Source of the DNA: Curtobacterium sp. ZW137
Lineage (GTDB): Bacteria; Actinomycetota; Actinomycetes; Actinomycetales; Microbacteriaceae
Assembly (NCBI RefSeq): GCF_003762905.1
Contig: NZ_RJKS01000001.1
Location: 992,001-1,056,000, forward strand
Length of the DNA: 64,000 nucleotides
Direction: 5' to 3'
Part shown: in pieces, positions 56,777-64,000 of the stretch
Numbering within the stretch: the first letter of the stretch is position 1
Layout of the letters: each line of letters begins with the position of its first letter
Notes under the pieces: generated by a model
Told to the model about the DNA's origin: nothing
What the model saw: the letters and a program-made list of their open reading frames with translations, nothing else
The model's database searches: none
Made by a program: the position numbers and the translations under genes

Positions 56777-57187
56777 TTACGCCTCGGTCGTCTCTGCGTC
56801 AGCGTCGGCCTCGGCCGGAGCGGCCGGGGCCTTCTTCTCCGACTTGGGCTTCAGGACGGCCTTCTTCGACGAGTCGACGACGAAGGCTTCCTTCGGCTGC
56901 TTGACCTGGACCTTGGACTCGGTGTCCTTCTCGCCCTTGAACTTGGCCCAGTCGCCAGTCAGCTTGAGGAGGGCCGCGACCTGCTCGGTCGGCTGCGCGC
57001 CGACGCCGAGCCAGTACTGCGCACGGTCCGACTTGACCTCGATGAACGAGGGCTCCTCGGTCGGGTGGTACTTGCCGATCTCCTCGATGACGCGACCGTC
57101 GCGCTTGGTGCGCGAGTCGGCGACGACGATGCGGTAGTACGGCGCCCGGATCTTACCGAGACGCTTGAGACGGATCTTGACAGCCAC
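56777..57187 (-). CDS. rpsP: 30S ribosomal protein S16
   Basis: 136 residues: S16 core ([37 protein letters not shown]) plus a Lys/Ala/Glu-rich C-terminal extension of about 50 residues. GTG 57187 follows AGGAGCATTT. First gene of the rpsP-khpA-rimM-trmD unit. Confidence 0.98.
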
Positions 57188-57355: not shown

Positions 57356-59479
57356 CTACGGTGCGAGTGCGCGCACGGCTTCGAGCGCTTCGGACGTCGC
57401 GCGGACCGCGTCGACGCTCCGGGCGTCGCGTGCGCCGCCGACGACGGCGTACGGCACCCCCGCGGCCTGGAGGCCCGACACCAGTCCGGTGGGGTCGTCA
57501 CCGTCGGTGTCGATCGCCTGCTCCTGCCCCGCGCAGATCACGACGTTGTCCGCCGGGACCATGCGCTCCGCGCCGTCCTCGTCGCGGATCCAGAGCGCAC
57601 CGGGTTCGATGCGCAGGTACTCCTGGACACCGCCGACCATGCGCACCCCGGCGTCGCGCAGCCGGCCGAGGGCGACCCAGCGCGAGGTGAGCCCGACGCC
57701 CTGCCCGAACTTGCCCGAGCGGCGGAGCACGGTGACCTGGTCGCCGGGACGCAGGGTCCGGAGCGCCGTGGGCTGGCGCTGCGGCAGGTCGCCGACGACC
57801 TCGGTCGCCACGGCGAGGTCCCAGCGTGCAGCGAACTCCGCTGCGCGCACGACCTCGTCCGGGGACTCGGTGAGGAACGCGGCCGTGTCGACCCCGATCC
57901 CACCGCCGCCGATGATCGCGACGGTGCCGTCAGGGACACCTTCGCGGAGGGCCTGCTCGTACGAGCGGACGTGCGGCAGGTCGGCGCCCGCGATGTCGAC
58001 GAGGCGCGGGACCACCCCGGCGGCGAGGACCACGGCCTCGCTGTCGGCGAGGTCGGCAGCGGTCGCCGCACGGCCGAGGTGCACGGTGGCACCCCGGTCG
58101 TGGAGCTCGGTGCGCGCGGCCCGGATGGTCGCGGCGTAGTCCTCTTTCCCGGGGACGAGCGCGGCGAGGCCGAACTGACCGCCGAGCGTGTCCGTTGCTT
58201 CCCACAGGGTGACCCGGTGCCCGCGCCGTGCGGCGTCCACCGCGGCGGCGAGACCGGCCGGTCCCCCGCCGACGACGTCGACGCGCTTCGGCTCGGCGGT
58301 GGGCCGCGCCGGGAACGCGACTTCGCGTGCGGCGCGCGGGTTCACCAGGCAGGACACCGGCTGGCCGATGATCGAGCGGTCGAGGCAGGCCTGGTTGCAG
58401 CCGATGCAGGTGTTGACGAGGTCGAATCGTCCGCCGAGGGAACGCGACACGATCTCGGGGTCGGCGAGGAACGGGCGCGCGAGGGCGACGGCGTCGATCA
58501 GCCCGTCCGCGAGCACGGCCTCACCGTCGCGGAGGTCCGTCATCCGGTTCGACGCGATCACCCGGACGTCGGGGTGATCCGAGGCGCGCACCACCCGGGC
58601 GATGCGCTCCGCGTAGGACAGCCACGCCCCGTGCGGCACCGCGGCCTGCACGGTCGGGGTGCGGGACTCGTGCCAGCCGATGCCGACCGAGATGCCGTCG
58701 AGCCCGAGCGGCAGGAGTTCGTGCACCAGGGCGTCGACGTCGTCGTCCGTGGAGGAACCGGGCATCAGGTCGGCACCGGAGAGCCGGATCGTGACTGCGA
58801 GGTCGGGCACTGCGGCACGCACGGCGCGGACGACCTCGACCGGGAACCGCCGCCGCGCAGCAGCCGATCCGCCCCACTCGTCGTCGCGGAGGTTCGTCAG
58901 CGGCGACGCGAACTGGTTGATGAGGTAGCCCTCGGACGCCATGATCTCGACGCCGTCGAAGCCGATGTCCCGGGCACTCCGCGCCGCGGCGGCGAAGTCC
59001 GCGATGGTCTGCTCGACCTCCGCGCCGGTCAGCTCCGTCGGCACCACGCCACGGGCGGCCGCCCACGGCAGCGCGGACGGCGCGACCGCACGCTGCGGAG
59101 CGCCGTGCCGGTCCGTCATGCCCGCGACGAGCGCGTACCGGCCGGCGTGGAACAGCTGCGCGAGGATGGTGCCGCCGGACTCGTGCACGGCCTCGACCGC
59201 GAGGCGGAACCGCTCGTCCGCGCCGTCGACGCCGAACACCGCGAAGTCCGGGCCACCACGCGCTCCGTCGGAGATCGCGATCCCGCCGGTGATGATGCAC
59301 GCGGCACCGCCGGCCGCACGCTCACGGTAGAACGCCGCCATCCCGACCCCGCCGTCGTCGTGCACCTCGAGCCCGGTGTGCATCGACCCCATCACGACCC
59401 GGTTGGGCAGGTGCAGCGGGCCGAGCGTCCACGGGGACGCGACGGTCGCGACGGCGGTGTCGGGAGCGGCGACGGTCAT
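57356..59479 (-). CDS. 2,4-dienoyl-CoA reductase-like flavoenzyme (AnsM/PlmM-like)
   Basis: 707 residues. N-terminal old-yellow-enzyme barrel (about 15-350) with GFDGVEIMASEGYLINQFASP, then a 4Fe-4S cluster motif CIGCNQACLDRSIIGQPVSC, then an NAD(P)/FAD domain with VVGGGPAGLAAAVDAARRG and AIIGGGGIGVD. This is the architecture of FadH, which reduces conjugated dienoyl-CoA thioesters. It is the last gene of the cyclohexanecarboxyl-CoA-type operon, two bases after the SDR gene, where it would reduce one of the ring double bonds (inference). Confidence 0.88.
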   Translation of the reverse strand: MTVAAPDTAVATVASPWTLGPLHLPNRVVMGSMHTGLEVHDDGGVGMAAFYRERAAGGAACIITGGIAISDGARGGPDFAVFGVDGADERFRLAVEAVHESGGTILAQLFHAGRYALVAGMTDRHGAPQRAVAPSALPWAAARGVVPTELTGAEVEQTIADFAAAARSARDIGFDGVEIMASEGYLINQFASPLTNLRDDEWGGSAAARRRFPVEVVRAVRAAVPDLAVTIRLSGADLMPGSSTDDDVDALVHELLPLGLDGISVGIGWHESRTPTVQAAVPHGAWLSYAERIARVVRASDHPDVRVIASNRMTDLRDGEAVLADGLIDAVALARPFLADPEIVSRSLGGRFDLVNTCIGCNQACLDRSIIGQPVSCLVNPRAAREVAFPARPTAEPKRVDVVGGGPAGLAAAVDAARRGHRVTLWEATDTLGGQFGLAALVPGKEDYAATIRAARTELHDRGATVHLGRAATAADLADSEAVVLAAGVVPRLVDIAGADLPHVRSYEQALREGVPDGTVAIIGGGGIGVDTAAFLTESPDEVVRAAEFAARWDLAVATEVVGDLPQRQPTALRTLRPGDQVTVLRRSGKFGQGVGLTSRWVALGRLRDAGVRMVGGVQEYLRIEPGALWIRDEDGAERMVPADNVVICAGQEQAIDTDGDDPTGLVSGLQAAGVPYAVVGGARDARSVDAVRATSEALEAVRALAP

Positions 59480-59481
59480 GG

Positions 59482-60330
59482 CTACGAGGCGTCCGCGGCG
59501 TTCGTGACCGAGCCGTCCGACGGCAGCACCGCGTCGCGGAGCGGCGACGTCGTGTCCGCCCAGTACGGCGGCGCGATGACGGTGAGCCCGCCGTCGACGG
59601 AGAGGACCTGACCCGTGATGTACGACGCCTTGTCGGAGAGCAGGAAGTCCACGGCGTCCGCCATGTCGTCCGCGGTGCCCGGGCGCTGCAGCGGCAGCTT
59701 CTCGTAGACGGTCTCGATCGGCGCCTGGCCGGGGACCTTCGTGTAGAAGTACTCGAGCGAGTCGGTGTCGATGAGCCCGCCGTTGACCGCGTTCACGGTG
59801 ATCTGGCGCGGACCGAACTCGACCGCCATGTACTTCATGTAGGACTCGCTCATCGCCTTCGCGGCACCGAGCGCGGCGTACGTCGGGAACGCACGGAGCG
59901 AGCCGTACGAGGTGACGACGACGATGCGGCCGCCCTTGTCCATGAGCTGTGCGGCGCGCTGGGCACCGAGCACGAACGAGCGGGCGTTCGTGGCGTAGCT
60001 GCGGTCGAGGTGGTGCAGCTTCAGGTCGGCGACCGGCTTGAAGGCGCTCGCGGCGGCGTTCGCGACGAAGTAGTCGAGGCGACCGTACGTGTCGCGCACC
60101 ACGTCGAACAGGGCGTCGATCGACTCCGGCTGCTCGATGTCGACCTGGGCGGTGATCCCGTCGCCACCGGCGGCCTTGACGTCGGCGAGCGACTCCTCGG
60201 CCAGGTCGGCGTTGCCCTTGTACGTCACGACGACGGTCACGCCGCGCTGGCCGAGCTTCTGCGCGAGCAGACGGCCGATGCCGCGGGAGGCGCCGGTGAT
60301 GAGCGCGATGGGTGCGGTGCTGTCGGTCAC
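59482..60330 (-). CDS. chcA: enoyl-CoA reductase of SDR type, ChcA-like
   Basis: 282 residues. N-terminal cofactor motif TGASRGIG; the active site VTSYGSLRAFPTYAALGAAKA has Tyr and Lys six residues apart (Y-x6-K), the spacing of FabI/FabL enoyl reductases rather than the Y-x3-K of ordinary SDRs. ChcA (1-cyclohexenylcarbonyl-CoA reductase) of Streptomyces collinus is a member of this group and reduces several ring double bonds. GTG 60330 follows AAAGGA. Symbol assigned by operon context. Confidence 0.82.
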   Translation of the reverse strand: MTDSTAPIALITGASRGIGRLLAQKLGQRGVTVVVTYKGNADLAEESLADVKAAGGDGITAQVDIEQPESIDALFDVVRDTYGRLDYFVANAAASAFKPVADLKLHHLDRSYATNARSFVLGAQRAAQLMDKGGRIVVVTSYGSLRAFPTYAALGAAKAMSESYMKYMAVEFGPRQITVNAVNGGLIDTDSLEYFYTKVPGQAPIETVYEKLPLQRPGTADDMADAVDFLLSDKASYITGQVLSVDGGLTVIAPPYWADTTSPLRDAVLPSDGSVTNAADAS

Positions 60331-60359
60331 TTGTGTCCTTTGCTGACGTGGTGCGAGAC

Positions 60360-60401
60360 GGACTGGAGGCTCGGGGCGGGCCCGCACCGGGCCTCCCGTC
60401 C
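60360..60401. terminator. hairpin inside the operon, family copy 6
   Basis: GGACTGGAGGCTCGG (60360-60374) pairs with CCGGGCCTCCCGTCC (60387-60401) with two mismatches, in the 86-base gap between the dehydrogenase and chcA-like genes. It may reduce read-through within the operon. Confidence 0.55.
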
Positions 60402-60416
60402 GGTGGTTGGTTGCGG

Positions 60417-61585
60417 CTAGAACCCGGCCTGGCCGGTCACGACGGCGCGGCCGACGACCAGCTTCTGGATCTCGTTGGTGCCCTCTTCGAAGCGCTGCGC
60501 GCGGGCGTCGCGGTACACGCGCTCGATCGCGTTGCGCTTCCAGTAGCCCTGGCCGCCGTGCACCTGCAGTGCCTTGTCCGTGACGCGGGCGAGCATGTCG
60601 ACCGCGACCATCTTGGAGGCGCTGGAGAGCGTGCCGGCATCGGGGCGGCTCTCTTCGTAGGCGCGGGCGGCTTCGAGGACGAGCGCACGCGCAGCGGCGA
60701 TGTCCGCGTAGTTCTCCGCGATGTAGAACTGGATGGCCTGGCGGCTGGAGAGCTTCTTGCCGAACGTCTCGCGCTCGTTGGCGTACTCGACGGCGAGCTC
60801 GTTCGCCCGCTCGGCCAGCCCGACGGCGCTCATCGCGACCGAGACGCGGCTCGGCAGGAGGAAGCCGCCGAGCGCGACCTCGAGGCCCTGGCCCACTTCC
60901 CCGAGCAGCGCGCTGGCCGGGACCGGGGTGTCCGTGAAGCGGAGGATCGCGTGGTCGGTGCCGCGGATGCCCATGGTGTCCGAGTCGTCGATCACCTCAG
61001 CACCCGGCAGCCCGGTGTTCGGCATCAGGAACGCGACGGTGCCGTCCTGGCCCGTCGTGCCCTCGAGCCGGGCCGCGATCAGCCAGTAGTCGCACTTGAC
61101 GCCGAACGTGATGAGGTGCTTCTCGCCGTTCATCACGTAGGTGTCGCCATCATGGCGGACCGTGGTGCGGATGTCCGCGCCGGTGCCGGCCGTGGCCTCG
61201 GTCAGCGTGAACGCGACGAGCTTGTCACCGGCGACGGAGGGCTTGACCACTTCCTCGATCTGCTCGGGGGTGGCGTACGGGGCCATCGCGCGCCAGGTGC
61301 CGTTGATCACGTGCACGAGCATCCGGATCGACGCGTGCGAGCGCGACACGATCTCCATGATCTCGAGGTAGCGCGAGAACGGGATGTCGCGCCCACCGAG
61401 CTCGGTCGGCGCCGCGAGGCTCAGCCAGCCCTTGTCCTTGAGCTCCTGGAAGAGCTCCGGCGCGACCTGGCCGGTGCGCTCGATCTCGTTCGCCCACTCT
61501 TCGCCACGGCCGCGCACCCACTCGGTGACCTCGGCCTTGAGCTGCTGGAAGTCCTGCTCGGCGGCGGTTTCCATCACCATCGTCA

Positions 61586-61589
<4 letters not shown>
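60417..61589 (-). CDS. acyl-CoA dehydrogenase homologue lacking the catalytic Glu (AnsL/PlmL-like)
   Basis: 390 residues, full acyl-CoA dehydrogenase fold: FTLTEATAGTGADIRTTV flavin region, YANERETFGKKLSSRQAIQ, and the FAD loop RFEEGTNEIQKLVVGR. The catalytic base normally found in G-Y-x-x-E-Y-P-V-E-R is replaced here (GYWKRNAIERVYRDAR has Arg), and the alternative helix position used by isovaleryl-type enzymes has no Glu either. It overlaps the fusion gene (ATGA). Proposed role: an oxidation or dehydration step on cyclohexenylcarbonyl-CoA intermediates. Confidence 0.85.

Positions 61590-64000
<2,411 letters not shown>

What the first reader, a model, noticed from the sequence alone, without database searches (positions are those of the whole stretch)
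57356..64000. Complete-looking operon for cyclohexanecarboxyl-CoA from shikimate, without a polyketide cluster
Four coupled minus-strand genes encode, in order, an EPSP-synthase-like/CoA-ligase fusion, an acyl-CoA dehydrogenase homologue, a ChcA-like enoyl-CoA reductase and a FadH-like flavoenzyme. Seen directly: domain order, 1-4 base junctions and motifs. Established: the same enzyme set (AnsJ, AnsK, AnsL, ChcA, AnsM; PlmJK, PlmL, ChcA, PlmM) makes cyclohexanecarboxyl-CoA for ansatrienin and phoslactomycin in Streptomyces, and omega-cyclohexyl fatty acids occur in Curtobacterium pusillum. Inference: here the operon supplies the starter unit for omega-cyclohexyl membrane lipids. It lies next to rpsP in otherwise conserved housekeeping DNA.
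Basis: partly seen in the sequence, partly recalled or inferred. Interest (0 to 1): 0.92.

Follow-up and report, generated by a model that had tools for sequence, protein, structure and literature searches.

The report
Probable cyclohexane-lipid operon in Curtobacterium
A soil and plant bacterium carries a compact set of four genes that very likely turns shikimate into a six-membered-ring building block for its membrane fats; the chemistry is known from antibiotic producers and heat-loving bacteria, but here the set stands without antibiotic-type genes, is shared with species reported to make such fats, and appears to have been lost several times in close relatives.

Summary
The operon is real: minus-strand genes from 57356 to 747 bases past the window end encode an EPSP-synthase-like/acyl-CoA-ligase fusion, an acyl-CoA dehydrogenase homologue, a ChcA/FabL-like reductase and a FadH-like flavoenzyme, beside rpsP. 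The order equals plmJK-plmL-chcA-plmM and recurs in 74 of 80 named loci, including Curtobacterium pusillum and Propionibacterium cyclohexanicum, both reported omega-cyclohexyl fatty-acid species. The genome shows no modular polyketide synthase; a FabF-type gene adjoins the set in 14 of 80 loci. A cyclohexanecarboxyl-CoA primer for membrane lipids is well supported; nothing biochemical was tested. Against: C. flaccumfaciens, C. luteum and Subtercola lobariae hold unbroken copies, yet the tables seen list no omega-cyclohexyl acid. New: 41 of 66 genomes of the genus carry the fusion; the other 25 keep fadH beside rpsP, with genes 1-2 missing in 20 of 20 fetched loci, suggesting repeated loss. The EPSP-like domain lacks five residues kept in E. 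coli and own AroA. New member of a known kind.

The parts
61586..64000 (-). Gene 1 (cut by the window end; runs on to window coordinate 64747): EPSP-synthase-like domain (residues 9-436) fused to acyl-CoA ligase (506-1033), 1053 aa; AnsJ-AnsK / PlmJK counterpart
   Evidence: PF00275 2.7e-79, PF00501 5.5e-64; ligase best NCBIfam: TIGR03208 cyclohexanecarboxylate-CoA ligase, 418 bits, below its cut-off of 792
60417..61589 (-). Gene 2: acyl-CoA dehydrogenase homologue, 390 aa, Glu of the EGT motif kept; AnsL / PlmL counterpart; overlaps gene 1 by 4 bases
   Evidence: Glu in 78 of 79 loci with the gene, one not covered
59482..60330 (-). Gene 3: SDR enoyl reductase with S-Y-x6-K, GTG start, 282 aa; ChcA counterpart, nearest solved structure by sequence B. 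subtilis FabL
   Evidence: 3oic, 5.2e-51; Ser, Tyr, Lys in 74 of 74 loci with the gene
57356..59479 (-). Gene 4: FadH-like flavoenzyme (2,4-dienoyl-CoA reductase family), 707 aa; AnsM / PlmM counterpart
   Evidence: 1ps9 E. coli 2,4-dienoyl-CoA reductase, 1.1e-142; four Cys kept in 72 of 74 loci with the gene, two not covered
56777..57187 (-). rpsP, the gene after the operon; beside gene 4 also in the 25 genomes of the genus without the fusion

Best explanation
The operon makes cyclohexanecarboxyl-CoA from shikimate, and the ordinary type II fatty-acid synthase uses it as primer, giving omega-cyclohexyl membrane fatty acids. Proposed course (inferred): the EPSP-synthase-like domain removes a hydroxyl from unphosphorylated shikimate; the fused ligase makes the CoA ester; the acyl-CoA dehydrogenase homologue, the FadH-like flavoenzyme and the ChcA-like reductase carry out the remaining eliminations, shifts and double-bond reductions; a KAS III then condenses cyclohexanecarboxyl-CoA with malonyl-ACP. 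Shown here: gene content, order, catalytic residues, occurrence in two species reported to hold the lipid, no modular PKS in the genome, FabF-type genes beside some homologous sets. Inferred: each enzymatic step, and that this strain makes the lipid.
For: Order EPSP-ligase-ACAD-SDR-FadH in 74 of 80 named loci, the order of plmJK-plmL-ChcA-plmM (PMC5852498 Table 2, passage). Carriers include C. pusillum ATCC 19096 (L053) and P. cyclohexanicum DSM 16859 (L107), species reported with omega-alicyclic acids (PMC5023266, passages); in PMC12889094 Table 3 the listed acids of C. pusillum DSM 20527 add up to only 47.2% (my sum). Herbiconiux ginsengi, solani and moechotypicola have matches to all five domains (fadH of H. 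solani in two pieces); 'Cyclohexyl-C17:0 may be present' in that genus, and H. oxytropis CPCC 203407, whose locus shows no genes 3-4, is listed with other major acids (PMC10011130, passages). PF00109 in the genome: two ORFs of 422 and 445 aa plus a weak hit to a KAS III. A FabF-type gene adjoins the set in 14 of 80 named loci, its Cys-His-His seen in 13; Pfam-checked in L110, L118, L125, L128. EPSP-like domain: S23->Y, R100->Y, S169 absent, S197->E, K411->I against E. coli AroA, all five kept in the cell's own AroA.
Against: C. flaccumfaciens LMG 3645 (L058), C. luteum JCM 1480 (L071) and Subtercola lobariae (L081) have long open frames over all five domains, yet the tables seen list no omega-cyclohexyl acid for these species. 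FadH is retained without the fusion in 25 of 25 non-carriers. A second KAS III gene does not track the operon. In Actinoplanes (L126) and in unnamed G638 (L192) homologous sets lie a few kb from KS domains in frames of 2467 and 2250 codons, so such sets may also serve polyketides. 6 of the 34 carriers outside the genus in the family draw gave no FadH match at E 1e-140. No enzyme activity or lipid data for this strain.
Confidence: 0.75

Rival explanations
1. The operon makes cyclohexanecarboxyl-CoA (or a partly reduced ring acid), but for a small molecule other than membrane lipid, for instance an acylated natural product or a signal.
For: Some carriers show no omega-cyclohexyl acid in the published tables seen. 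Homologous sets near KS domains in long frames in L126 and L192. In four Streptomyces loci (L118, L120, L123, L124) a further acyl-CoA ligase match follows the FabF-type gene (Pfam in L118).
Against: No modular PKS seen in this genome; housekeeping neighbourhood; occurrence in the two reported omega-cyclohexyl species.
Confidence: 0.12
2. A catabolic set: degradation of cyclohexanecarboxylate or a shikimate-like plant acid, run toward ring opening.
For: The ligase resembles AliA cyclohexanecarboxylate-CoA ligases (TIGR03208; plasmid records annotated aliA at 37-39%); gene 2 has hits far below cut-off to cyclohexanecarboxyl-CoA dehydrogenase models; FadH belongs to a beta-oxidation family and is kept on its own in relatives.
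Against: None of the four genes has a hydratase or hydrolase domain such as the BadK hydratase and BadI hydrolase of the degradation pathway (PMC9795900, passage); the EPSP-like domain has no place in that route; gene 3 is an enoyl-reductase type (FabL, Y-x6-K).
Confidence: 0.06
3. The EPSP-like domain is a second AroA and the rest an unrelated fatty-acid oxidation operon.
For: The NCBIfam aroA model scores it above its cut-off (322.7 against 287.25 bits).
Against: The cell has its own AroA and MurA. Five residues kept in E. coli and own AroA are replaced; S169 is absent and S197 is E in 81 of 81 homologues. It is fused to a CoA ligase in a conserved set.
Confidence: 0.03

Closest known systems
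CHC-CoA genes of the phoslactomycin/lactomycin clusters (plmJK, plmL, chcA, plmM; lmP1-P4)
   Same: Same enzyme types in the same order (PMC5852498 Table 2, passage); that plmJK is an EPSP-like/ligase fusion is recalled, the table calls lmP1/plmJK only an AMP-dependent synthetase and ligase
   Different: Here no PKS, regulator or tailoring genes; lies between ffh and rpsP; no modular PKS seen in the genome. The plm proteins were not fetched, so no identity is given
ansJ-ansK-ansL-chcA-ansM of Streptomyces collinus (ansatrienin)
   Same: Same set as recalled; Cropp et al. 2000 'cyclohexylcarbonyl CoA biosynthetic gene cluster' seen only as a citation in PMC10295569
   Different: As above; J and K separate there as recalled, not checked
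Omega-cyclohexyl fatty acids of Alicyclobacillus acidocaldarius
   Same: Proposed end product; about 51% C17:0 and 33% C19:0 omega-cyclohexane acids in strain 104-IAT; formation from shikimate cited (PMC3035248, passages)
   Different: The Alicyclobacillus genes were not reached here (145 of 225 relatives are not shown)
Five-domain set of Propionibacterium cyclohexanicum DSM 16859 (L107)
   Same: EPSP-ligase-ACAD-SDR-FadH in order, 57/62/71/66/44% identity
   Different: No ffh or rpsP match in the fetched flanks

Membership tests
Cyclohexanecarboxyl-CoA biosynthesis set (Ans/Plm type) | EPSP-like, CoA ligase, ACAD-like, ChcA-like SDR and FadH/OYE-like genes together in this order | tested here: met
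   order as in PMC5852498 Table 2
Cyclohexanecarboxyl-CoA biosynthesis set (Ans/Plm type) | Highest sequence similarity to characterised AnsJ/K/L/M, ChcA, Plm proteins | not tested
   Those sequences were not fetched; the three full-length matches in the family of G638 are 54-58% identical to the fusion
Cyclohexanecarboxyl-CoA biosynthesis set (Ans/Plm type) | Enzymatic conversion of shikimate to cyclohexanecarboxyl-CoA | not testable with these tools
   needs enzymology or labelling
Omega-cyclohexyl lipid pathway | Genes present in species known to make the lipid | tested here: met
   C. pusillum ATCC 19096 (L053) and P. cyclohexanicum DSM 16859 (L107) complete; producers per PMC5023266; Alicyclobacillus not reached
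Omega-cyclohexyl lipid pathway | Genes absent or broken where the lipid is not reported | tested here: inconclusive
   H. oxytropis L101 shows no genes 3-4, but C. flaccumfaciens LMG 3645, C. luteum JCM 1480 and S. lobariae have unbroken frames without a listed omega-cyclohexyl acid
Omega-cyclohexyl lipid pathway | No other obvious consumer of the primer (no modular PKS) | tested here: met
   PF00109 in the own genome: two ORFs of 422 and 445 aa and a weak hit to a KAS III; PF08545 five hits over the cut-off, two strong (96 and 94 bits), three of 29-40 bits not identified
EPSP synthase (AroA) | Residues of the E. coli site as recalled (S23, R100, S169, S197, K411) | tested here: not met
   Y, Y, absent, E and I in the window domain, while the own AroA (L001) has S, R, S, S, K; the own AroA in turn differs from E. 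coli at N94, Y200, D313, N336 and K340
FabL/ChcA-type enoyl reductase | Y-x6-K with Ser in an SDR | tested here: met
   S141, Y151, K158 in 74 of 74 homologues; 3oic 5.2e-51; the NCBIfam FabL model is hit below its cut-off (228.5 against 328 bits)
Cyclohexanecarboxylate degradation (ali-bad) | Hydratase and ring-opening hydrolase in the gene set | tested here: not met
   Pfam of all four genes shows neither; a genome-wide search was not made

The most novel reading that the evidence does not exclude
A PKS-free shikimate-to-cyclohexanecarboxyl-CoA module, in several lineages coupled to its own FabF-type ketosynthase, is a widespread membrane-lipid trait of Actinomycetota (including MAGs labelled Solirubrobacterales, and one 7-kb contig labelled Eremiobacterota), overlooked because routine fatty-acid libraries call the peak C18:1 (summed feature 8) or because it is made only under some conditions. 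In Curtobacterium it is ancestral at the ffh-rpsP site and has been excised repeatedly, leaving fadH behind with another job; close carrier/non-carrier pairs are thus natural knock-outs.
Probability: 0.35. Interest if true: 0.72.

Novelty: new member of a known kind. Interest (0 to 1): 0.55.

Why it matters
Omega-cyclohexyl acids have been known in Curtobacterium and Alicyclobacillus for decades, but in the listings of the ten paper searches made here (open-licence papers only, most subscription journals missing) I saw no title or abstract start that assigns their genes in a membrane-lipid setting. This operon gives a candidate, a genus in which 41 of 66 genomes have the fusion and 25 do not, and closely related carrier/non-carrier pairs, so both the pathway and the use of ring-tipped lipids become directly testable. 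It also shows an AroA-like domain that probably works on another shikimate reaction and that the aroA model would label AroA.

Tried and rejected
Dedicated primer enzyme: the second KAS III gene (C1:470 kb) is found in non-carriers as in carriers, and four carriers (G354, G817, G818, G824) have only the distant KAS III, so it does not track the operon. FabF2 (C1:659 kb) as counterpart of the cluster-linked FabF: the cluster-linked proteins are about equally distant (38-44%) from both own FabF proteins, so rejected. Plasmid-borne copies: 0 of 34 plasmid records with a match cover 80% of the fusion. Modular PKS beside the named loci: a ketosynthase motif in 1 of 80; by search with FabF, a KS in a 2467-codon frame in L126 and a second KS in a 959-codon frame in L129. 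'Only C. pusillum carries it': rejected. A summed-feature-8 misreading as full explanation of the discordant carriers was not adopted: Frondihabitans, a genus with carriers, is listed with major C18:1 and C. flaccumfaciens with 3.6% summed feature 8, but S. lobariae has no such acid listed, and a Herbiconiux strain with 28.1% (CPCC 205763, H. aconitum) belongs to a species absent from the 80 loci. Alicyclobacillus could not be reached: the single named-genome scan kept 80 of 225 relatives.

Limits and faults of my own scripts: the counts rest on the best match per domain, not on full length; one search shows genes in several pieces, as by frameshifts, in L078, L080, L083, L094 and L100. In one search, L191 (G964) shows no FadH match, and L188 and L194 only EPSP-like and ligase. 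The residue columns for own AroA and MurA came from wrong frames and were redone. One search stopped on an error after four loci and was not repeated. The query labelled lipB is a frame from the lipB/lipA stretch and was not used for any claim. Rows dropped: 2 of 52 from the concatenated tree (short contigs); 4 of 52 from the FadH tree, among them the non-carrier L181, whose fadH matches in two pieces. L051 was not given to that call. 5 of 25 non-carriers were not fetched at length.

Full report
What is there. The window is G000:C1:992001-1056000 of a 3.9-Mb genome. Reading on past its end gives four minus-strand genes between a divergent YbdK-type gene and rpsP: gene 1, 1053 aa, EPSP-synthase-like domain plus acyl-CoA ligase; gene 2, acyl-CoA dehydrogenase homologue; gene 3, SDR; gene 4, FadH-like. 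Genes 1/2 overlap by 4 bases, 2/3 are 86 apart, 3/4 are 2 apart. Nearest solved structures by sequence: EPSP synthases for the first domain, acyl-CoA dehydrogenases, B. subtilis FabL, E. coli 2,4-dienoyl-CoA reductase.

Whose genome. A scan of named genomes with an alignment of the EPSP-like domain found 225 relatives and kept the best 80. Of the first 28 rows (90-98% identity) 27 are titled Curtobacterium and one (L051) Microbacteriaceae, so the window's genus is Curtobacterium; its nearest rows on a five-protein tree are two Curtobacterium strains not named to species.

Distribution. Domain 1 at E <= 1e-40 is in 43 of 398 genomes of the family, 14 of 85 genera; the fusion is in 41 of 66 genomes of the genus, one of them (G780, 65% complete) in pieces. 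In a class-wide draw 4 of 394 genomes matched: the own genome, two others with the fusion (G437, G638) and one with the ligase part only (G466). In the family of G638, 5 of 297; I take this family to be Streptomycetaceae because the G1087 contig has the length of the Streptomyces sulphureus contig of L119. In 74 of the 80 named loci matches to all five domains stand on one strand in the same order; four others end at a contig edge, and L099 (Herbiconiux sp.) and L101 (H. oxytropis) show no genes 3-4. These are best matches; in L078, L080, L083, L094 and L100 some genes come in several pieces. Catalytic residues are kept: acyl-CoA dehydrogenase Glu in 78 of 79 loci with the gene (one not covered), SDR Ser/Tyr/Lys in 74 of 74, four FadH Cys in 72 of 74 (two not covered), ligase Gly and Lys of the phosphate loop in 80 of 80.

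Link to lipids. The set matches plmJK-plmL-ChcA-plmM in order (PMC5852498 Table 2, passage). C. pusillum and P. cyclohexanicum, named as holding omega-alicyclic acids in PMC5023266 (passages), carry it complete. In PMC12889094 (section 23 read) the listed acids of C. pusillum DSM 20527 add up to 47.2% (my sums) against 98.2% for C. flaccumfaciens, 96.6% for C. luteum and 98.9% for C. herbarum, in keeping with a large unlisted acid. Herbiconiux 'may' hold cyclohexyl-C17:0 (PMC10011130, passages). The genome's ketosynthase-domain hits are two FabF-size ORFs and a weak hit to a KAS III. In 14 of 80 named loci a FabF-type gene lies directly beside the set: downstream in L115, L118, L119, L120, L121, L123, L124, L128, L129; upstream in L110, L117, L125, L127, L130. 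Its Cys-His-His is seen in 13, L130 being cut by the contig end; open frames are 422-540 codons, except 1112 in L121 and the cut ones in L117 and L130. I read this as the set feeding a fatty-acid-type chain, which is inference. The same scan shows KS domains in a long frame near the set in L126, and in L192 of G638, so such sets can also lie by what look like polyketide genes.

Results against. C. flaccumfaciens LMG 3645 (L058), C. luteum JCM 1480 (L071) and Subtercola lobariae (L081) have long open frames for all five domains, but the tables seen list no omega-cyclohexyl acid for these species (for C. luteum and S. lobariae the table names other collection numbers than the genome record). Either the genes are used only at times, or the acid was missed, or the product is something else. 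C. flaccumfaciens is listed with 3.6% summed feature 8 and Frondihabitans, a genus with carriers, with C18:1 as a major acid; a misread omega-cyclohexyl peak is possible but untested, and H. aconitum CPCC 205763 with 28.1% of it is not among the carriers shown.

Repeated loss. All 25 genomes of the genus without the fusion keep gene 4 beside rpsP. For 20 of 25 I fetched the whole stretch: YbdK-fadH-rpsP in 19, and YbdK-gene 3-fadH-rpsP in one (L184). FadH lies in an open frame in 20 of 20. A concatenated tree of 50 rows needs 7 changes between carrier and non-carrier, a FadH tree of 48 rows 5 (quick trees with some open forks; counts alone cannot tell gain from loss). Loss is favoured because Humibacter and Frondihabitans hold the full set at the same site, and because, of the eight non-carrier stretches printed, six keep by eye what looks like the last codons of gene 3, its stop changed, ahead of fadH; one (L168) shows none and one (L184) still has gene 3. 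In the family draw, 28 of 34 carriers outside the genus have a FadH match at E 1e-140, 26 of them at 58% identity or more; six have none (G008, G091, G155, G250, G349, G395; only two candidates per genome were scored). Non-carriers outside the genus show at most 49%. So this FadH mostly goes with the set but has a further use in Curtobacterium; no second FadH reached E 1e-140 in the own genome, which would explain its retention (inference).

EPSP-like domain. Against E. coli AroA the window domain is 29% identical, against the cell's own AroA 30%. Kept as in E. coli: K22, R27, G96, T97, R124, S170, Q171, Y200, D313, R338, K340, E341, D343, R344, D384, H385, R386. Replaced: S23 by Y, R100 by Y, S169 absent, S197 by E, K411 by I; the own AroA has the E. 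coli residue at all five. N94 is S and N336 is H, but there the own AroA differs from E. coli too, as it does at Y200, D313 and K340, so the comparison at 30% identity has limits. Over 81 homologues: R100 is Y in 81, S169 absent in 81, S197 is E in 81, K411 is I in 80, S23 is Y in 79 with 2 not covered. As I recall, S169 and S197 bind the phosphate of shikimate-3-phosphate, so the pattern fits an unphosphorylated substrate; this is inference.

Verdict. Chemistry and product are known kinds, so I file it as a new member of a known kind, with added interest from the family-wide distribution, the FabF-linked forms and the apparent repeated deletion that leaves fadH.

Noticed in passing
57356-59479 and L132-L156, L168-L187: fadH stays beside rpsP in the genomes of the genus without the gene-1 fusion (25 of 25; one of the 20 fetched also keeps gene 3), in an open frame in the 20 fetched.
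   Followed up: yes
61586-64000 (gene 1, first domain): The NCBIfam aroA model scores the domain above its curated cut-off (322.7 against 287.25 bits), so automatic annotation may list a second AroA in such genomes.
   Followed up: partly
L110, L115, L117-L121, L123-L125, L127-L130: A FabF-type ketosynthase gene directly beside the set in 14 of 80 loci, including MAGs labelled Solirubrobacterales and one 7-kb contig labelled Candidatus Eremiobacterota.
   Followed up: partly
L118, L120, L123, L124: A further acyl-CoA ligase match follows the FabF-type gene in four Streptomyces loci; product unknown.
   Followed up: no
L188 (G1087), L194 (G832): Copies of EPSP-like plus ligase without matches to the other three genes in the fetched 19 kb, in genomes that also hold another copy.
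   Followed up: no
L099, L101, L191: Sets that look incomplete: two Herbiconiux loci without genes 3-4 within the flank, and L191 (G964) without a FadH match.
   Followed up: partly
L004:10873-12003 (plus strand, beyond the window end): A divergent YbdK-type carboxylate-amine ligase gene (named from memory) shares the upstream region with the operon and stays in place in the 20 fetched loci that lost genes 1-2 or 1-3.
   Followed up: partly
G000:C1:470223-471293: A second KAS III gene, present in most genomes of the genus; carriers G354, G817, G818 and G824 have only the distant KAS III.
   Followed up: partly
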